From: a virus
Virus record (IMG/VR): IMGVR_UViG_3300036944_001650
Location: 1 to 35,679 of that record
Direction: 5' to 3' (one strand)
Length of the DNA stretch: 35,679 nt
The number at the start of each line of letters is the position of its first letter. The first letter of the stretch is position 1. The notes under the pieces are model-generated. The model was not told the DNA's origin, did not search any database, and worked only from the letters and a program-made list of their open reading frames with translations. The translations under genes and the position numbers were made by a program. Below are positions 3,166 through 32,266 of the stretch, piece by piece.

Positions 3166-3521
3166 GAGCGTCGGATGCGGGGGCGGGCGGTGGTGGTCAC
3201 GTCCTCCGCGACCAAGGGGGCGGGGTTCCGGTGGCCGCAGTTACTACAGTTCCAGTATTCATCGGCCGCCTGCGCGACGATGCCGTAGCAATTCCCGCAG
3301 CCGCCGCACTCGCCGGCAAAGCCGTGGACGGTCGCTCCGCTCATCTTCGCCAGCGCGCGGCCGTGGTGGATCCAGCCGATGTTCATGCCATGGAGCACGC
3401 CACGGTGCCGGGCACGGGACACCGCGGCGGCGGCTTCGCGCCGCTGGCGGGGAACGTCGATGAAGACGAGCCACGCGGACAAGGCGAGGGCCGGGGCGGT
3501 GATGAGCAAAAAGGCGATCAT
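3162..3521 (-). CDS. Membrane-anchored zinc-ribbon protein, unknown role (119 aa)
   Basis: The start ATG 3521 overlaps the preceding stop and gives 119 residues. The first 20 or so residues form a hydrophobic helix (MIAFLLITAPALALSAWLVF) followed by an Arg-rich stretch, so it is probably a single-pass inner-membrane protein. The second half has cysteine pairs in a zinc-ribbon arrangement: CGGCGNC around residues 73-79 and YWNCSNCGHRN around 91-101. It lies between the gp27-like gene and the small gene before terminase. The operon mixes packaging and lysis genes, so its function cannot be assigned from context. A longer in-frame opening up to 3797 exists but reads through the upstream gene and is rejected. 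Confidence 0.6.
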   Translation of the reverse strand: MIAFLLITAPALALSAWLVFIDVPRQRREAAAAVSRARHRGVLHGMNIGWIHHGRALAKMSGATVHGFAGECGGCGNCYGIVAQAADEYWNCSNCGHRNPAPLVAEDVTTTARPRIRRS

Positions 3522-4207
3522 GGGGCGGCGGGGTTGGGGTTCGGGTGGCCGGTGCCGAAAAGGAGCTGACGGAGATCCGCCATGACGACTTCCTTGGACT
3601 TGCCGCTGTCCAGGATGGCGGCGGCCTCCGGCGTCCGCGCCCATTCGAGAAACTTGGACACCGTCTGGCTTTCGAACTTCTCGCGGTCGAGCTGCTGGGC
3701 CTGTTCCTTCAACCGCACCTTCTTCTTGTCGAGTTCCAGCCGGCCGCGTGCCGCCGCGCCCTTCTGGAGGCTGCCGACCGCGTTGGCCACGGAGCATAGG
3801 CCTTCCAGCGGGTCTTTCTCGGCGTCATCGCTGCCGCCGGTGACGACCAGGTTGCCGACCGTCTCCAGCGCTTCCAGGATGTTCCCGGCGATGATGGCCG
3901 CGGCGCCGTCCGCGATGCTGCCGCCGGACTTGGCCACCTTCACGGCGAAGCTGGTGAGCGTCTTGAGGTGCTCGGATTTCTCGTTGCGGCCGATCCAGTC
4001 GCGGTAGCCGCCCATCCGCCATTGCGATAGGTTTTCCGCGGAAGCCGGCACGCCTTCGAAGTGCGCTTCCCAGATCCGGACGGCTTCCGGCTCGGCATTC
4101 AGCCAGGCGAGCAGCGTTCCGGAAGTCTCCCCGTCGAGCAGGCGACGGTTGATCTCCTCCCGCAGCGAGTGGGGGAGCCGCGCGATTTTTCCGGTGCGGG
4201 TGGCCAT
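3518..4207 (-). CDS. Mu gp27-like protein (DUF3486-type), putative small terminase
   Basis: A 229-residue protein whose first 65 residues match the pattern of Mu gp27/DUF3486 proteins: GKIARLPHSLREEINRRLLD, then an LLAWLN segment, then LSQWRMGGYRDW, which reads as a helix-turn-helix-like unit. The remainder is helical with a Lys/Glu/Gln-rich coiled-coil region near residues 150-190 (LELDKKKVRLKEQAQQLDRE). In Mu-like phages this gene sits directly before the terminase large subunit and is thought to be the small terminase or a packaging regulator. Here it is separated from terminase by two small genes, all overlapping by ATGA. The family call rests on the N-terminal pattern and position. Confidence 0.7.
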   Translation of the reverse strand: MATRTGKIARLPHSLREEINRRLLDGETSGTLLAWLNAEPEAVRIWEAHFEGVPASAENLSQWRMGGYRDWIGRNEKSEHLKTLTSFAVKVAKSGGSIADGAAAIIAGNILEALETVGNLVVTGGSDDAEKDPLEGLCSVANAVGSLQKGAAARGRLELDKKKVRLKEQAQQLDREKFESQTVSKFLEWARTPEAAAILDSGKSKEVVMADLRQLLFGTGHPNPNPAAP

Positions 4208-20033: not shown

Positions 20034-20097
20034 AAAGCTTCTGAGCATCGGCACCATCTACTTGTTCATCCTCTTAATTTTGAATCAACAAACGACT

Positions 20098-20325
20098 ATG
20101 AAAAAACCAATCATCGAAGAAAACACACTGGAAAACGAACATCTCACCGCAACCATCTGGCAACAGGTGGAAGATGGAGTCGCTGAACAGGCGATCCACG
20201 CTCGGACATGGGACGGCGGCGACAACGCCAAGCTGATCGAACTGAAACAGGAAAACGGCTCGGTGCTGCTGAATGGCGAGACGATCCGCGAACTCTCGAA
20301 AATGCTGATCCGTTGGATTGGATGA
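20098..20325 (+). CDS. Small acidic island protein, unknown (75 aa)
   Basis: A 75-residue protein from ATG 20098 (an upstream in-frame TTG at 20062 is less likely). It has a Glu/Asn-rich start (KKPIIEENTLENEHLTATIW) and a C-terminal helix (GETIRELSKMLIRWIG). The 64 bases before it are AT-rich (CTTAATTTTGAATCAACAAA), unlike the rest of the window, and may contain a promoter, though no convincing -35/-10 pair with good spacing is visible. Function unknown. Confidence 0.5.
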   Translation: MKKPIIEENTLENEHLTATIWQQVEDGVAEQAIHARTWDGGDNAKLIELKQENGSVLLNGETIRELSKMLIRWIG

Positions 20326-20719: not shown

Positions 20720-21688
20720 ATGAAACCGCTGGACGATCAAGAGGCCTTGACGGGCCTACAAAATGCCATTCGCAAGGCCGGGCTTTCGCGGAATACCCAC
20801 AAGTGCTATCGCGGCTGGGTGATCCGCTACCGCGAGGCGCGCAAGCTGCGTCTCTGCCGCGACCTGCAAACCTACCTCGATCACCTCGCGACCGTCGAGG
20901 AGCTCAATCCGAAAACGATCCGGCAGGCGCTCAATGCGCTGAAACTTTACCACGAGGCGGTGCTCAAAATCGAGATCCCGCCGAATTCGCTGGATCTACC
21001 CCGGATCAATCCTCACCGGAACATGCCGGTCTGGCTGACGCACGAGGAGGCGATGGATCTGATCGGCCGGATGCGCGGCCTGCCCCAACTACAAGCGATG
21101 TTCCTTTACGGCACCGGCAGCCGGATTACGGCCATGCTTACCCTGCGGCTGAAGGACGTGGATTTGTCGCGCGGCATCGTCACCTTCCGGCATGACAAGG
21201 GCGGGAAATCCCGGCCGGTGAAGCTCCCACAGATGCTGCTGCCGCTCCTTGCCGGGCACATCGCCGGCACCAGAAAGCAATGGGAGATCGACCGCGCCCG
21301 CGACGTCATCTGTCCGCCGCCGGACGAGTCACTACTTCGAAAGCTGGGACGCCGGCAATTCGGACGGCTCGCCTGGTATTGGCTCTTCCCGTCCGCCGTC
21401 GTCCGTGATGGTGCCCGCTGGCACTCCACCGAACGCGCGCTGGTCGCGGAGTTGGATCGTGCCGTTGACGAGTCCGGCCTGACAAAGCGGGTCACATGCC
21501 ACACCCTCCGCCATTCCAATGCCACCGCGCTGGTCGAGTGCGGGGAAAACATCCGCGCCATCCAGGAGCACCTCGGTCATACCAATGTCCAGACAACGAT
21601 GATTTACACGCACGTAACCTGCGAGGAAGCTCTGGTCTCTCCAATGGATAGCCCGCCGCCGCCACGCCGGAGCTTGGTGATCCGCTGA
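20720..21688 (+). CDS. Integron-integrase-like tyrosine recombinase
   Basis: A 322-residue site-specific recombinase. Residues 1-95 are the SAM-like core-binding domain; the catalytic domain has R135 (GTGSRITAMLTLRLKDVDLS), K160/K163 (DKGGKSRPVKLP), H261 and R264 (CHTLRHSNAT), H287 (QEHLGHTNVQTT) and the nucleophile Y296 (MIYTHV). The H-R-H-Y spacing (3, 26, 35) is the same as in IntI1 (H277, R280, H303, Y312), and a WYWLFPS..VRDG insert-like stretch also recalls IntI. All catalytic residues are present. It is not needed for a transposing phage, so it probably came with the island. No attC-like array was recognised nearby. Confidence 0.8.
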   Translation: MKPLDDQEALTGLQNAIRKAGLSRNTHKCYRGWVIRYREARKLRLCRDLQTYLDHLATVEELNPKTIRQALNALKLYHEAVLKIEIPPNSLDLPRINPHRNMPVWLTHEEAMDLIGRMRGLPQLQAMFLYGTGSRITAMLTLRLKDVDLSRGIVTFRHDKGGKSRPVKLPQMLLPLLAGHIAGTRKQWEIDRARDVICPPPDESLLRKLGRRQFGRLAWYWLFPSAVVRDGARWHSTERALVAELDRAVDESGLTKRVTCHTLRHSNATALVECGENIRAIQEHLGHTNVQTTMIYTHVTCEEALVSPMDSPPPPRRSLVIR

Positions 21689-25233: not shown

Positions 25234-26165
25234 AACTCTACTTCGACCTCGGCAAGGAACGCCTCCTCTCCGTCCCCCGCGGCGGGGAGATCAATCTCAT
25301 CCACCTCAAGGCCGGCGGGCTCGCGGAACTGGCGGTCGATTTCTACGACGGCAAGGCCAGCACCGCGCCGGCCTTCACGCCCCTCATCCAGTTCGCCGTG
25401 AAAACGGCTGAGGAAGGCAGCCTCCTCGCCTTCGCGGACTTCGATGCCTTCACCGGCAGCGGTGCCTTCTGGGCCGGGGAACTCCTCACGAACACCGCCG
25501 AAATGGTCGACTGGCTGGACGGAGCTTCTTCCAAACTCGCCGTCGCCGAGCTGACCATCCGCGATGGAGAGGAGGGCATCCCCATCCGCAGCCAGACGCT
25601 CCAAGTCCGCGTGGCGAATCATGTCATCCGCGGGGACGAGGGCACGCCTGGCTCGCTGCCAGATCCCGCCGCCTGGCTTGCGGCGAACGGCATCGTCTAC
25701 GATCCGGCGATCATCGGATTGACCGGCGGGGGAGCGACCAAGCTGGACGGCACCGCCACCGTCGGCATCGCGCCCGGCCGCACGCAGCTCGTCATTGTCA
25801 GCGGCCTGAGTCATCTCTACCGCCTCACGGCCGGAACGACGGTGGAGTCATCCCCCGAATCGATCCGCCCCGATGACTACAACGCCGGCACAAATGCCAA
25901 GGTCTGGGTGCTCCAATCGCTTCGCGTGCCCTACGTGTCCGCCGGGCGGCTGGGCATCGCTTACGGCGGGCACTATTCGGAAATCATCTCCGAGCTGCTG
26001 ACGGCAGGCCGGGAATACCAACTCCCGGACCGCTCCGGCACCTTAGCCGTCGGCATCCCGGAGCACGCCACCCTCGCCGCCGCCAACGCCGCTATCGCCG
26101 CCATCGGCGTTGTCTTCTACAATCTCGCTACCTCACGCCATGAAGTCACCACGGACACTGTCTAA
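25230..26165 (+). CDS. Putative baseplate/fibre protein with BppU-like N terminus
   Basis: A 311-residue protein. Residues 1-150 have the immunoglobulin-like fold pattern of BppU N-terminal domains (NLIHLKAGGLAELAVDFYDG, then PLIQFAVKTAEEGSLLAFAD, then LTIRDGEEGIPIRSQTLQVR). A spacer and a second beta-rich domain follow (GRTQLVIVSGLSHLYRLTAG, then DDYNAGTNAKVWVLQSLRVP). It probably links the tail tip or a neck fibre to the receptor-binding protein encoded next. Its end overlaps the next gene by 26 bases. Confidence 0.6.
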   Translation: MKLYFDLGKERLLSVPRGGEINLIHLKAGGLAELAVDFYDGKASTAPAFTPLIQFAVKTAEEGSLLAFADFDAFTGSGAFWAGELLTNTAEMVDWLDGASSKLAVAELTIRDGEEGIPIRSQTLQVRVANHVIRGDEGTPGSLPDPAAWLAANGIVYDPAIIGLTGGGATKLDGTATVGIAPGRTQLVIVSGLSHLYRLTAGTTVESSPESIRPDDYNAGTNAKVWVLQSLRVPYVSAGRLGIAYGGHYSEIISELLTAGREYQLPDRSGTLAVGIPEHATLAAANAAIAAIGVVFYNLATSRHEVTTDTV

Positions 26166-28179
26166 AATCCTCGCCGCGGTCTGGCCGCTCATCGGACTCG
26201 CCACCGCGCAAACCTCCCTCGTCAACGGGAAGGGCGGGGGCATCACGAATCCTGCGGCGTTCCGGACGGCGCTGGGTGGCAGCTCTTCCGGATCCGCGCT
26301 CTTCACGGACAATCCGAACGCCCTCAAGAACACGTTTGCCAAGGTGATCGCGGGTTACTCCGGTTCCGGCCAGATCAACGTGATGACGGCCGGCGACTCC
26401 CTTTCCGCCGGAATCAATGCACCCAACGGCGGGCTCGCAATGCTGGAACATCGCTGGGGTATCGCCGGCGTAGGAGTCGGCGGAATCGGGGTTTACGGGG
26501 GGCCTTCCGTTTCAGGTGGAGCATCGGTTTCGTCGACGGACTATGCACGCTGGTGGAACGGCAACGTCGCCGTGGTGCCGGCAGCAGGTGAGGCCGTCTA
26601 CGACTACAACACGACCGGCCCGATCTACTGCAACCGCATCCGGATCTTCTACATCAAGGAGGACGCAGTTGGGAAATTCAAGGTCCAGACGAGCTTCAAC
26701 GGCGCGGCTTATGCGGATGAGAATTCCACCCGGACAAGCGGAGTCACCACCAACGGCAGCCCCAACATTTCCTTCGCCACTTCTGGAGGCGTGATCCCCC
26801 CCTTGGGGATGATCGTGACCGGCACCGGCATTCCCGTTAACACCTATGTGGTGTCCGCGACAGCGACCACGGCGGTTTTGAATCAAAACGCGACCGCGAC
26901 CGGAAGCGGGTTGACGTTCACTTTCAGCCCGAATGTCGATACCGACAACAACGCGTCGACCGCCGCGGGGATCATCACCCTCGACAAATCGGCAGCCGCA
27001 AATGTCGGGCTGTATCGGGTCAAGATCGTCGGTCTCACCGGGACCGTCCGGATCATCGGGGCTCTCTTTGATCACACGGGGATGTCGGGGGTGGTTAGGA
27101 CATCCCTTTCCAAAGGCTCTTCCGACTTCACGGAGTGGGACGACTGCCCGGCGTCGGTCATCAACACGGTGATTGGCAGCATCGCCCCTGACCTCACGCT
27201 CTTTGCCAACGTCGGCACCACGACTGAAGGCGCGCTCAATACCATGTTCGGGCGGCTATCCACCGCGCACGCGGCGAGCGACAGGATCATCTTCGGGGTG
27301 TGGCCTAATGCGACGGCGACGGAGGTCACGGAAAATCCGGTTTTGGAAGCCTGGGCGCGGGCGAACTCAGCGGCCTACGTGTCGCCGACCTGGCACTGGC
27401 CGACCCACGCGGCTTTGCAAGCGGCCGGGCTGTCAGCAGACGCCACGCACCCGACCGCGACCGGCTACGCGCTGATGACCAGTTGGGCGTTCGAGCGAGT
27501 GCTCGCCGGCTGGCCTGCCATCACTCCCGTGCTACCAGGTGGCGGAGGCAGCGGAGTTCCCTACAACATCCTCACGGCGGGTCGGCTGCTTGAGCCTGGC
27601 AGCGGGATCCAAACGGTCAACCTGACGCAAAGCTTGTCAGCGCCGTTCATCGCGGTCTCGCAGAGTGCTTCCGGGGGCTTGGTCATCCGTGACCGATCTC
27701 TCACCGGTTCGTCGGACCAACACGCCATTTATCGCAGCGGCGGCGCGCTGGTCACCGAGGCGGCCGGCGGATCCGCTTCCTACACCTCGCTCAACAACCT
27801 GGGGCATTTCGAGTTCTTCCCCTCTCTCTCGGCCGGCGACAACCGTCTCGGCCGGTCCGCCAACCGCTGGGGGCGCATCTTCACGAACGGCATCTATCTG
27901 GCATCATCAACCAAGACCGGCGCTTACACTGCGACCGACCGAGATCACCTCCTGCTTTGTGACGCGACGAGCGCGGCTTTCACGGTCACGCTCCCGGCCG
28001 TCGCCTCCAACTCGGGCCTCGTGCTCGTGGTTAAGAAGATCGACGCGTCGGGCAACGCCGTCACGCTGGACGGGAACGCGAGCGAGACCATCGACGGTGC
28101 GACCACCCTGGCCCTCACGGCTCAATGGAACCGCGCCCTGATCCAGAGCAACGGCACGGCGTGGTTCCGCATCGACTGA
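26140..28179 (+). CDS. SGNH/GDSL esterase tail fibre or spike with signal-like N terminus
   Basis: A 679-residue protein starting at ATG 26140. Residues 1-24 look like a Sec signal (MKSPRTLSKILAAVWPLIGL then ATAQ), unusual for a virion protein. A fibre-like motif follows (NGKGGGITNPAAFRTALG). An SGNH hydrolase domain starts at INVMTAGDSLSAG (G85-D86-S87, block I) and ends at DATHPTATGYALM (D434, H437, block V), with a lectin/Ig-like insertion near 180-280. The C terminus has fibre repeats (SANRWGRIFTNGIYLASS) and a beta-rich end. It probably de-esterifies surface polysaccharide during adsorption. Palindrome copy 3 follows. Confidence 0.75.
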   Translation: MKSPRTLSKILAAVWPLIGLATAQTSLVNGKGGGITNPAAFRTALGGSSSGSALFTDNPNALKNTFAKVIAGYSGSGQINVMTAGDSLSAGINAPNGGLAMLEHRWGIAGVGVGGIGVYGGPSVSGGASVSSTDYARWWNGNVAVVPAAGEAVYDYNTTGPIYCNRIRIFYIKEDAVGKFKVQTSFNGAAYADENSTRTSGVTTNGSPNISFATSGGVIPPLGMIVTGTGIPVNTYVVSATATTAVLNQNATATGSGLTFTFSPNVDTDNNASTAAGIITLDKSAAANVGLYRVKIVGLTGTVRIIGALFDHTGMSGVVRTSLSKGSSDFTEWDDCPASVINTVIGSIAPDLTLFANVGTTTEGALNTMFGRLSTAHAASDRIIFGVWPNATATEVTENPVLEAWARANSAAYVSPTWHWPTHAALQAAGLSADATHPTATGYALMTSWAFERVLAGWPAITPVLPGGGGSGVPYNILTAGRLLEPGSGIQTVNLTQSLSAPFIAVSQSASGGLVIRDRSLTGSSDQHAIYRSGGALVTEAAGGSASYTSLNNLGHFEFFPSLSAGDNRLGRSANRWGRIFTNGIYLASSTKTGAYTATDRDHLLLCDATSAAFTVTLPAVASNSGLVLVVKKIDASGNAVTLDGNASETIDGATTLALTAQWNRALIQSNGTAWFRID

Positions 28180-28782: not shown

Positions 28783-29544
28783 ATGTCCCTCGCCGCCACC
28801 TACCCCGGTTACATCTCCATCGCGGAAGATCCGCAAAACATCATGTTCGGCACGGTGCAAGTCGGCACCGACTTCGGCCAGGCCAAGTCCGCCAGCGTGA
28901 AGCGCACCGCCGACAAGGAAGAGCTGGACCGGAACAACGGCAGCCTGCTCGCCGTCATCCTCCGCAAGCCCCGCTTCGAGCTGACCCTCAAGACCCTCTT
29001 CACCCTGGACGTGGCCGCCCCCGGCATCGGCGAGCGCATCGTCTTCCCGCTCGTCGGCGTCATCGGCAACATCCTCGACGTCACCGTGGACTGGGAGGAC
29101 AACTCCGGCCGCATGCTCAGCATCGAAGCCACGAGCTGGGACACCTTCCAGAACGAGGTCACGGCGCAGCACTACGACGGCAGCGCCTGGACGCCCATCG
29201 TCGACACCGTGGCCATCGACGCCCCGACCGCGCCGACGCTGGTCAGCGCGTCGATCAACACCGCCGGCAACCTCCTCACCACCGTCTTCAGCGTCCCGGT
29301 CACCGTCCCGCCGCTCACCACGGCGATGGTCCTCACCGGCAGCGTCTCCGGTGCGGATGCCGTGGCCTACGCCACCGGCAGCGGCACCAGCGCCATCCAG
29401 TGGAACCTTGCCGACATCATCACCGACCCGGAGACCTGCACGCTGGCCTACACCCAGCCCGGCAACGGCATCCAGGACCTCATTGGCACCGACCTCGCCA
29501 CCTTCAGCGGCACCGCGGTCACCAACAACTCCACCCAGGTCTAA
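28783..29544 (+). CDS. Major tail tube protein with Ig-like C-terminal domain
   Basis: A 253-residue protein. The N-terminal 145 residues are a tail-tube-like beta structure (GYISIAEDPQNIMFGTVQVG, later RKPRFELTLKTLFTLDV and NILDVTVDWEDNSGRMLSIE). Residues 150-253 are an added Ig-like beta-sandwich rich in Thr/Ser (TAPTLVSASINTAGNLLTTV), as seen decorating siphovirus tubes. No sheath gene lies next to it, so the tail is likely non-contractile. It is immediately followed by the chaperone with frameshift. Confidence 0.65.
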   Translation: MSLAATYPGYISIAEDPQNIMFGTVQVGTDFGQAKSASVKRTADKEELDRNNGSLLAVILRKPRFELTLKTLFTLDVAAPGIGERIVFPLVGVIGNILDVTVDWEDNSGRMLSIEATSWDTFQNEVTAQHYDGSAWTPIVDTVAIDAPTAPTLVSASINTAGNLLTTVFSVPVTVPPLTTAMVLTGSVSGADAVAYATGSGTSAIQWNLADIITDPETCTLAYTQPGNGIQDLIGTDLATFSGTAVTNNSTQV

Positions 29545-29565: not shown

Positions 29566-30204
29566 ATGCCCGCGACTCCCTACCCCCTGACCGGCCCCGA
29601 CCCGGACAAGCTGGCCGACGGCTCCCCCCGTCCCCGCTGCCCGCAAACGGGGAAGCCGCTGATGACGCTGGAGGAAGCCAACTGGCACTCCCACGTCAGC
29701 GGCATGGCGGCCCGCGCCGCCGCGGATGCCAATGGCGATCCGGTCGCCACCGCCGCGCTGCTGGACGGCGCGGCCGGCGGCGGGCCGGTCATCGGCAAGT
29801 GGCAGCTCCGGCCGCTCACCATCGGGACCTTCAATGTCCTCCAACTCGTCGGATCCGCGCATGCCCGCGAGAACGCCGACGGTCAACCGATCGCCGTCGG
29901 CCTGATGGACATCGCCCGCGCCGCCCTGGTCTTCGCCAAGCCGGAATGGTCGTACCAGCAGCTCCGCAAGGGCGACGTCAGCCGGGAGGAATTCGAGGCG
30001 GAGGTCGTCGAGCTTTCCTTCCTCCTCGATCCCGCCGCCATCAAGCGGGCCAACGATTGGATCGAGCACGAGATGCGCGAGTTCTTCGGCGAGGAGACCA
30101 CCGCAAAAAAGCCGCTGCCGCCGGATCTCCCCGCGGGGCCGGCCGAGTCACCGGCCTCGCCCGGAACCACGCCGGACCTGCCAGCGGATGGCAGCCCGCC
30201 CTGA
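29566..30204 (+). CDS. Tail assembly chaperone, zero-frame product (G-like)
   Basis: A 212-residue protein following the tube gene with a GAGG SD (CAGAGGACATG). The helical core is RPLTIGTFNVLQLVGSAHAR, then LMDIARAALVFAKPEWSYQQ and RANDWIEHEMREFFGEET. The C-terminal part after the slippery site is Pro-rich and unstructured, as in other G proteins, where the zero-frame tail is dispensable. The arrangement (tube, chaperone with frameshift, tape measure) matches long-tailed phages, in which G and GT guide tape-measure assembly. Confidence 0.75.
   Translation: MPATPYPLTGPDPDKLADGSPRPRCPQTGKPLMTLEEANWHSHVSGMAARAAADANGDPVATAALLDGAAGGGPVIGKWQLRPLTIGTFNVLQLVGSAHARENADGQPIAVGLMDIARAALVFAKPEWSYQQLRKGDVSREEFEAEVVELSFLLDPAAIKRANDWIEHEMREFFGEETTAKKPLPPDLPAGPAESPASPGTTPDLPADGSPP
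30105..30111 (+). promoter_or_regulatory. Slippery heptamer for minus-1 ribosomal frameshift
   Basis: A-AAA-AAG, in frame as GCA-AAA-AAG. An SD-like GAGGAG at 30091-30096 ends eight bases upstream, and a 10-bp stem (30133-30142 with 30151-30160, one G-U pair) lies 21 bases downstream. The minus-1 frame is open from here to 30428, giving a fusion of about 287 residues (182 zero-frame codons plus 105). Confidence 0.8.
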
Positions 30205-30428
30205 TCGAGATGCTCATGGCGGACTACCGGCAGACCCTCCGCAGCGCGGTCTTCCGCTTCCCCCTCCGGGCCGCCTTTGCCCTGCTCCCGTGCCGGGCGG
30301 AGCGCCTGGGCCATGAGACCCGCACCGCCGACCACGGCGACCGCGCCTGGCTGGCCGAGAAATCCCGGATCAAGGCCTGGCTGTCCGAGCACTACGCGAT
30401 CCAAGCCCCCACCGCGAAAGCACCATGA
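30111..30428 (+). CDS. Minus-1 frame extension (T-part) of the tail assembly chaperone
   Basis: Read by frameshift from 30111, this frame encodes AAAGSPRGAGRVTGLARNHA, then GWQPALIEMLMADYRQTLRS and a helical end (GDRAWLAEKSRIKAWLSEHY). A stand-alone start at ATG 30210 would give 72 residues, but the open frame back to the slippery site and the coherent WQPALIEMLMADYR stretch before that ATG favour the fusion. In lambda-type systems the T part contacts tail tube subunits while G contacts the tape measure. The stop overlaps the tape-measure ATG. Confidence 0.72.
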   Translation, partial: AAAAGSPRGAGRVTGLARNHAGPASGWQPALIEMLMADYRQTLRSAVFRFPLRAAFALLPCRAERLGHETRTADHGDRAWLAEKSRIKAWLSEHYAIQAPTAKAP

Positions 30429-32266
30429 GCGAAGGAATCTTCTACACCCTGGGCCTGCGCACCTCCGCCTTCACCGGGCCGCTGGCTTCCGCGCAATCCG
30501 CCATCGGCCGCTTCCAGGGCAGCCTGGCAGGGATGGCGGCAAAGGCCGCGGCCCTGGCCGCCCCGGTCATCGGCGTCGGCGCCGCCTTCGCCGGCTTCCG
30601 CAAGGCCATCACCGCCGCGGCGGACATGGAGAGCACGGCCGTCGCCTTCGAGACCCTCATCGGCTCCGCGTCCAAGGCCAAGAAGACCCTCGACGAGCTC
30701 AAGGCGCTGGGAGCCGAGACCCCCTTCGAGTTCCCCGAGCTCGCCGATGCCGGCCGCAAGCTCATCGCCTTCGGGGAGGGCGCGGACACCGTCGGCGCGA
30801 CCCTCCGCCGGATCGGCGATCTCGCGAGCGGCGTGCAAGCGCCCATCGGCGAGATCGCCGAGCTTTTCGGCAAGGCCCGTGTGCAAGGCACCCTATTCGC
30901 GGAGGACATCAACCAGCTCACCGGTCGCGGCATCCCCGTGATCCAGCAGTTCGCGAACATCCTCGGCGTCAGCCAGGGCGAGGTGAAGAAGCTGGCCAGC
31001 GAGGGCAAGATCACCTTCCCGCTGCTGGAGCAGGCATTCGTCAACCTCACCTCCCAGGGCGGCCAGTTCTTCAACATGATGGCCAAGCAGAGCGGCACGA
31101 CCAACGGACTGCTCTCCACCCTCAAGGACAACATCGGCGAGATCTTCCGGATCATCGGCCAGCCCATCAACGACTTCCTGCGCCCCTTCCTCACCGACAG
31201 CATCGCCCGCACCCAGCGCCTGGGGCAGGGCCTCGCCGCCTTCATCAAGCTCCTCCAAGCCGCGCGCGAGGGAGGACAGCTTGGCGAGTTCGTCGGCAAT
31301 TCCCTGGTGCTCGCTGCCAAGGAGACGATCAACGTCCTGACCGGCGGCTTCCGCGGCGGCGTGGCCTACCTCGGCACCGCGCTCCCGGCCGTATTCTCCG
31401 CCGCGGCCGACTCTGTTTTCGGCAGCCGCTTCGCCATCGCCATCGAGTCCATCTTCCGTGCCGCCGGCGACATCATCTCGGCCTCCGCCCGCGACGGCGC
31501 GGCCAGTTTCGCCGAGGCATTCGGCCGCCTAGGCTTTGCCGATGATCTCCGCGAGTTTGCCGATGCCGACCGCCAGCGTGCCGCGAACCGCATGCGCACC
31601 GCCGCCGGTGCCCTCGGCGGGGCGAGGGGTGCCGACGTGGAAGAGGCCGCCCGGAAGATCCTGGACGCACACCGCGCCGGGGCCGCCGCCTTCGAGTCCG
31701 CCGCCAAGGACAGCCCCATCTTCGACACCCGCGCCGACCGCGCCCGCTTCGCCGAACTTTCCCGCGGGCTCGATCCAAAGGCCTTCGCCGAGCTGACCAA
31801 GGCTTTCCAGGGAACGCCCCTCATCCTGCAAAAGCTTTCCCGTGAGCAGGAAGGTGCGACGAAGGCGGCCAAGGACTTCACCGCCGCCATGAAACCCGCG
31901 GCCGCCGCTGCCGGCCGGGCTGCGGCCGGGGAGGGGCCATTCGCCGGCCAGGCCGCGGCCCGCCGACGCGGCCTCGCGAACCGGGAAGAGAGCCGCCTCC
32001 AACAGAACGACCGCCGGTCGGAGCGCGACAAGGCCCGGAATCCCCTCGGCCTTCGTGGTCTCCGCCGCTTCGACGAGGCCGGAGCCGCAGCTTTCCCCGT
32101 CGCCGGTCTGGACGCCATCAACCGCCGCGGCCAGGCCGCCGCCGAGAACGTCCGGCCTGGTAATCCTCGCCCGACGAAACCCCGCGAACTCATCGACGGC
32201 CAGTCCCGCGCCGAGCAGCTCCTCGCCAAGATCGAGTCCCACCTCGCCAAAGTGGAAGCCGCCTGA
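30425..32266 (+). CDS. Tape measure protein
   Basis: A 613-residue protein that sets tail length. The N-terminal part matches the tape-measure N-terminal domain (ADMESTAVAFETLIGSASKA, then KTLDELKALGAETPFEFPEL, then LFAEDINQLTGRGIPVIQQF and LLSTLKDNIGEIFRIIGQPI). A hydrophobic stretch near residues 38-58 and Ala-rich helices follow; the C-terminal third is charged coiled coil. By the usual ratio of about 0.15 nm per residue, a tail near 90 nm is expected, short for a siphovirus. It follows the chaperone pair. Confidence 0.85.
   Translation: MSEGIFYTLGLRTSAFTGPLASAQSAIGRFQGSLAGMAAKAAALAAPVIGVGAAFAGFRKAITAAADMESTAVAFETLIGSASKAKKTLDELKALGAETPFEFPELADAGRKLIAFGEGADTVGATLRRIGDLASGVQAPIGEIAELFGKARVQGTLFAEDINQLTGRGIPVIQQFANILGVSQGEVKKLASEGKITFPLLEQAFVNLTSQGGQFFNMMAKQSGTTNGLLSTLKDNIGEIFRIIGQPINDFLRPFLTDSIARTQRLGQGLAAFIKLLQAAREGGQLGEFVGNSLVLAAKETINVLTGGFRGGVAYLGTALPAVFSAAADSVFGSRFAIAIESIFRAAGDIISASARDGAASFAEAFGRLGFADDLREFADADRQRAANRMRTAAGALGGARGADVEEAARKILDAHRAGAAAFESAAKDSPIFDTRADRARFAELSRGLDPKAFAELTKAFQGTPLILQKLSREQEGATKAAKDFTAAMKPAAAAAGRAAAGEGPFAGQAAARRRGLANREESRLQQNDRRSERDKARNPLGLRGLRRFDEAGAAAFPVAGLDAINRRGQAAAENVRPGNPRPTKPRELIDGQSRAEQLLAKIESHLAKVEAA

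What the first reader, a model, noticed from the sequence alone, without database searches (positions are those of the whole stretch)
29566..30428. Programmed minus-1 frameshift of dnaX type in the tail assembly chaperone
Seen: in-frame A-AAA-AAG at 30105-30111, an SD-like GAGGAG eight bases upstream, a 10-bp stem downstream, and an uninterrupted minus-1 frame to 30428 that ends on the tape-measure ATG. Known: A AAA AAG with an upstream SD-like element and a downstream hairpin is the E. coli dnaX design; lambda G/GT uses the same principle at another heptamer. Here the chaperone position agrees (tube, chaperone, tape measure). Such a dnaX-like cassette in a Mu-like phage with a non-contractile tail is notable, and the fusion would be missed by normal gene calling.
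Basis: partly seen in the sequence, partly recalled or inferred. Interest (0 to 1): 0.72.

Follow-up and report, generated by a model that had tools for sequence, protein, structure and literature searches.

The report
Tail chaperone with conserved ribosomal frameshift
A phage gene for a tail-building helper protein carries a slippery spot where some ribosomes slip back one base and make a longer fusion protein, a well-known trick of tailed phages that comparison with 31 relatives strongly supports here.

Summary
In ORF 29566-30204, A AAA AAG at 30105-30111 is in the phase needed for a -1 shift, GAGGAG lies 8 nt upstream, and the -1 frame is open to 30428, its TGA overlapping the tape-measure ATG (30425). 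Comparison supports the programmed frameshift. In 31 Verrucomicrobiota phage or prophage relatives the second frame is always -1, and 31 of 32 loci (window included) carry an in-phase slippery heptamer (A AAA AAA, A AAA AAG, A AAA AAC, G GGA AAN or C CCU UUA). The C-terminal domain is conserved upstream of the only usable internal start, and several relatives have no start there. In two close pairs the third-codon-position substitution pattern switches from the G frame to the -1 frame at the heptamer. Mechanism: -1 ribosomal frameshifting making a G-T tail assembly chaperone, as in lambda. "dnaX type" is only partly right. The heptamer and SD-like element fit, and SD-like elements are enriched across relatives. 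The 10-bp stem starts 21 nt after the heptamer (about 5-6 in dnaX), is no stronger than shuffles and is not conserved. A AAA AAG chaperone sites and Mu-like siphophages are both already published. A new member of a known kind; low surprise.

The parts
28783..29544 (+). major tail tube protein gene (candidate), upstream partner of the cassette
   Evidence: Position before the chaperone; same order in L002, L003, L004 and L088
29566..30204 (+). G: tail assembly chaperone, product of normal decoding, 212 aa
   Evidence: homologs in L002-L004 and L088 and others; predicted mostly helical domain, mean pLDDT 78
30091..30096 (+). SD-like GAGGAG, 8 nt before the heptamer (possible stimulator)
   Evidence: SD-like tetramers precede the heptamer in 17 of 30 loci, 3.5 expected
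30105..30111 (+). slippery heptamer A AAA AAG, in phase for -1
   Evidence: an in-phase slippery heptamer is present in 31 of 32 loci
30133..30160 (+). 10-bp stem (30133-30142 / 30151-30160), probably not a stimulator
   Evidence: z -0.72; not conserved
30111..30428 (+). T: -1 frame extension, 105 aa, stop 30426-30428; fusion G(1-182)+T(105) = 287 aa
   Evidence: conserved GW..aL...Y...PL core; T in the -1 frame of G in all 32 loci
30210..30212 (+). in-frame ATG of the T frame, the main alternative start; judged not used to make T
   Evidence: Conserved GP..GW.PALIE lies upstream of it; it would cut predicted helix 28-39 of T; no equivalent start in L002, L003, L138, L139
30425..32266 (+). tape measure protein (TMP_3), start overlaps the T stop (ATGA)
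   Evidence: Pfam PF20155 E 4e-22; PHROG tape measure families

Best explanation
This is the lambda-G/GT-type tail assembly chaperone cassette of a Mu-like phage of Verrucomicrobiota. Most ribosomes read gene G to its stop at 30204. A minority, with Lys-Lys tRNAs on AAA AAG, slip back one base at 30105-30111 to AAA AAA and continue in the -1 frame to 30428, giving a 287-aa G-T fusion. By analogy with lambda, G binds the tape-measure protein and the rarer G-T recruits tube subunits. Shown here: the anatomy, conservation of the heptamer and of the -1 arrangement, and a switch of coding frame at the heptamer in two pairs of relatives. Inferred: that the ribosome, not RNA polymerase, does the slipping; the efficiency; and the roles of G and G-T.
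For: All 32 loci have T in the -1 frame of G, and 31 of 32 have an in-phase XXXYYYZ site in the allowed stretch, with the heptamer type switching between lineages. Codon shuffles give such a site in 0.3-14% of cases per locus. G GGA AAG, the lambda heptamer, stands at the equivalent place in L002, L003, L137 and L139. Substitutions in L002/L003: before the heptamer [9,5,25] at G-codon positions 1,2,3; in the 231-nt overlap [1,17,5], i.e. at third positions of the -1 frame although the G frame is still open. L129/L126 show the same, [17,5,40] then [0,9,3]. In L002, L003, L138 and L139 no start codon lies between the heptamer and the conserved T core. The window's T is conserved upstream of ATG 30210. 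Heptamer plus -1 frame at tube-chaperone-tape measure is the pattern reviewed in PMC5009743 and applied in PMC3483164.
Against: L004, a real homolog, has no canonical heptamer. Three weak T matches (L175, L185, L190) lie in one long ORF and need no shift. In the window/L088 pair the short overlap shows no clear periodicity ([14,9,15]). G matches no Pfam, PHROG or solved structure, and the fold search gave nothing significant, so the name chaperone rests on gene order and layout. No protein data.
Confidence: 0.93

Rival explanations
1. The fusion is made by transcriptional slippage: RNA polymerase adds an A in the A-run and normal translation of the edited mRNA gives G-T.
For: Seven relatives have runs of nine or ten A (L088, L126, L129, L138, L143, L144, L187) and L189 has nine; nine A drive slippage in Thermus dnaX (PMC5009743, PMC3711429).
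Against: The window run is only six A, below the more than seven A that PMC3711429 cites for slippage. Sister sites G GGA AAG, G GGA AAA and C CCU UUA at the same place are not long homopolymers, so slippage cannot be the family's general mechanism.
Confidence: 0.04
2. T is a separate small gene started at ATG 30210 or 30216 by translational coupling with the G stop at 30204; the heptamer is incidental.
For: ATG 30210 lies 6 nt after the G stop, and L004 and L088 also have an in-frame ATG inside T.
Against: Residues upstream of the ATG (GP..GW.PALIE) are conserved in the -1 frame; the GW motif is the most conserved point over 16 loci. Starting there cuts the first predicted helix. L002, L003, L138 and L139 have no start before the core, and the codon periodicity switches at the heptamer, far upstream of any start.
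Confidence: 0.03
3. Chance: the open -1 frame is a by-product of high GC and the heptamer is a random A-run.
For: The -1 frame is open for 767 codons through unrelated genes, and one AAAAAAG is expected in a window like this.
Against: Conservation of heptamer, phase and T core in 31 of 32 loci, many with shorter -1 ORFs.
Confidence: 0.005

Closest known systems
Lambda G/GT tail assembly chaperone frameshift and its relatives in dsDNA tailed phages (Xu, Hendrix and Duda 2004, as cited in PMC3483164; reviewed in PMC5009743)
   Same: Gene order tube, chaperone, tape measure; -1 shift near the 3' end of G; sister loci use the lambda heptamer G GGA AAG
   Different: No detectable sequence similarity to listed chaperone families; heptamer A AAA AAG in the window
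Phage AH2, VT1-Sakai, psiM2, PVL, PV83 and ul36 chaperone genes with A AAA AAG (PMC3483164); Paenibacillus larvae phages (PMC6003738)
   Same: Same heptamer in the same gene position
   Different: Other phage lineages and hosts
E. coli dnaX frameshift cassette
   Same: A AAA AAG with an SD-like element upstream (8 nt here, 10 nt in dnaX)
   Different: dnaX has its stem about 5-6 nt downstream and shifts about 50% to an early stop; here the stem is 21 nt away and unremarkable, and the shift extends the protein
Mu-like siphophages (vB_SspS_MuM16-1, PMC8541194; D3112 and B3 from my own knowledge)
   Same: Mu-like transposase and head genes; no tail-sheath family matched among the proteins scanned
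   Different: Host phylum (Verrucomicrobiota here, inferred from relatives)

Membership tests
Lambda G/GT-type -1 frameshift in tail assembly chaperones | Two overlapping ORFs between major tail gene and tape-measure gene, second in the -1 frame | tested here: met
   same -1 arrangement in relatives
Lambda G/GT-type -1 frameshift in tail assembly chaperones | Slippery heptamer X XXY YYZ in phase near the end of G, conserved | tested here: met
   31 of 32 loci; L004 lacks one
Lambda G/GT-type -1 frameshift in tail assembly chaperones | The -1 frame is translated as a continuation of G (no independent start) | tested here: met
   Comparative only: no starts in several relatives and periodicity switch at the heptamer
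Lambda G/GT-type -1 frameshift in tail assembly chaperones | G and G-T made in a fixed ratio and needed for tail assembly | not testable with these tools
   Needs protein data and mutants
Lambda G/GT-type -1 frameshift in tail assembly chaperones | Sequence or fold similarity to known chaperones | tested here: inconclusive
   No Pfam, PHROG or PDB sequence match; Foldseek only insignificant hits, N15 GT at E 1.9
E. coli dnaX-type cassette | A AAA AAG heptamer in phase | tested here: met
E. coli dnaX-type cassette | SD-like stimulator about 10 nt upstream | tested here: met
   GAGGAG 8 nt upstream; enriched in relatives, 17 of 30 against 3.5 expected, though an acidic linker (GAG and GAC codons) may add to this
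E. coli dnaX-type cassette | Strong stem about 5-6 nt downstream | tested here: not met
   Stem starts 21 nt downstream, z -0.72; family mean z -0.67, no shared stem
E. coli dnaX-type cassette | Single tRNA-Lys(UUU) reading both AAA and AAG in the host | tested here: inconclusive
   Related host genomes carry tRNA-Lys CUU as well as UUU; the window's own host is unknown
Mu-like phage | Mu-type transposase and head genes | tested here: met
   phrog_310 transposase (weak, E 2.5e-5), Phage_Mu_F, Mu-like_Pro, Mu-like_gpT

The most novel reading that the evidence does not exclude
Within one chaperone family of Verrucomicrobiota phages the same fusion is made by two interchangeable mechanisms, ribosomal slipping at G GGA AAN, C CCU UUA or A6-7 sites and RNA-polymerase slippage at A9-A10 runs, with the A-site codon (AAA or AAG) tuned to hosts that carry two lysine tRNAs.
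Probability: 0.15. Interest if true: 0.4.

Novelty: new member of a known kind. Interest (0 to 1): 0.2.

Why it matters
It identifies the chaperone gene pair of a little-studied phage group, a protein that standard gene calling misses and that protein family libraries do not recognise. The 31-relative comparison gives a natural series of heptamers replacing one another at the same place, useful for testing which stimulators matter in hosts with two lysine tRNAs. It does not change the general picture of tail assembly.

Tried and rejected
Searching viral contigs with the window's G protein or tube protein alone found nothing, and phages with G found nothing; the tape measure served as anchor instead. 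L132 was a false match. The downstream hairpin as a stimulator was rejected, except that L141 and L142 do have a strong stem starting 6 nt downstream (z about -3.6). Structure predictions were of moderate confidence (pLDDT 74 and 78) and fold searches gave no significant match. Bare heptamer counts in the window were not informative. Independent start at 30210 and chance were considered and rejected on comparative grounds.

Full report
Observation. ORF 29566-30204 (212 aa) lies between the tube-like gene 28783-29544 and the tape-measure gene 30425-32266 (Pfam TMP_3, E 4e-22). Its codons ...GAG GAG ACC ACC GCA AAA AAG CCG... place A AAA AAG at 30105-30111 in the phase for a -1 slip. GAGGAG is 8 nt upstream. 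After a slip, reading continues from 30111 for 105 codons to TGA 30426-30428, overlapping the tape-measure ATG. The bare 7-mer is expected about once in such a window, and the -1 frame is open for 767 codons through other genes, so neither alone is evidence. With the protein kept and codons redrawn from the phage's usage, an A6G or A7 heptamer arises in this gene in 0.8% of trials, and any slippery site with A or U in the second triplet arises within its last 60 codons in 0.4%.

Relatives. The G protein itself finds nothing in viral contigs or phages, so the tape measure was used as anchor, followed by profile searches with the extension T. This gave 31 further loci from viral contigs and Verrucomicrobiota genomes in which G and T are adjacent. 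In all 32 loci T is in the -1 frame of G; 31 have an in-phase slippery heptamer near the end of G. Types: A AAA AAA (most), A AAA AAG (window, L140), A AAA AAC (L186, L192), G GGA AAG (L002, L003, L137, L139), G GGA AAA (L141, L142, L188), G GGA AAC (L136), C CCU UUA (L174, L176). L004 has none. Three weaker T matches (L175, L185, L190) lie in a single long ORF and were left out of the 32. Many loci are close relatives, so 31 of 32 overstates the number of independent events.

Is T an extension of G or its own gene? The window has an in-frame ATG at 30210, 6 nt after the G stop. But the stretch before it (GP..GW.PALIE) is conserved with L088, L002, L003 and L004, and the GW motif is the most conserved point of the T alignment. 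L002, L003, L138 and L139 have no ATG, GTG or TTG between the heptamer and the T core. In the model of T the first helix spans residues 28-39, so a start at residue 34 would cut it. Strongest, in the close pair L002/L003 substitutions before the heptamer fall at third positions of the G frame ([9,5,25]), and directly after it at third positions of the -1 frame ([1,17,5] by G-codon position) although the G frame stays open for 231 nt. L129/L126 show the same switch. The window/L088 pair is too diverged and its overlap too short to show it ([14,9,15]).

Mechanism. Ribosomal -1 slipping explains all heptamer types. An SD-like tetramer precedes the heptamer in 17 of 30 loci against 3.5 expected from the same genes (the acidic linker may inflate this and some loci are related). 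The stem is not borne out: it starts 21 nt after the heptamer, has z -0.72, and the family mean z is -0.67 with no shared structure, while E. coli dnaX has AGGGAG 10 nt upstream and a stem about 5-6 nt downstream (my own knowledge of the dnaX literature). Related host genomes carry tRNA-Lys CUU as well as UUU; a CUU tRNA would pair poorly with AAA after a slip, so A AAA AAG may be less slippery there than in E. coli (inference from PMC5009743), which would suit the low ratio needed for a chaperone.

Known or new. The -1 shift in tail chaperones is widely conserved in tailed phages (PMC5009743). A AAA AAG at this position is already listed for several phages (PMC3483164; PMC6003738). The window is Mu-like (transposase phrog_310, Phage_Mu_F, Mu-like_Pro, Mu-like_gpT), and a Mu-like siphovirus is described in PMC8541194. 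Hence a new member of a known kind, well supported and of modest interest.

Noticed in passing
window 20720-21688 (+): A tyrosine recombinase ORF (Phage_integrase E 2e-27, Phage_int_SAM_4) sits between Mu F-like and gpG-like genes of a phage that has its own Mu-type transposase; ORF 20062-20325 just upstream has unusually low GC (third-position GC 0.62).
   Followed up: no
L136 1004-1824 and downstream: G/T cassette of a related prophage that is not followed directly by a tape-measure gene but by small ORFs and a MARTGKIARLPH protein like window 3518-4207 (-), which matches phrog_426, terminase small subunit.
   Followed up: no
L185, L190, L175: T-like domain lies at the end of one long ORF, so no frameshift is needed; possible natural fusions or unrelated proteins.
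   Followed up: no
L004 4547-4607: Homologous G/T pair in the -1 arrangement without any canonical XXXYYYZ heptamer in the allowed 60 nt.
   Followed up: partly
L088, L126, L129, L138, L143, L144, L189: A-run of exactly nine A at the shift site in lineages that otherwise differ, the length that drives transcriptional slippage in Thermus dnaX.
   Followed up: partly
L184 (reverse complement, 1555-1557): T frame is interrupted by a TGA inside the conserved core; sequencing error, decay or recoding not distinguished.
   Followed up: no
window 26110-28179 (+): 689-aa ORF without clear family match between neck and tube genes.
   Followed up: no
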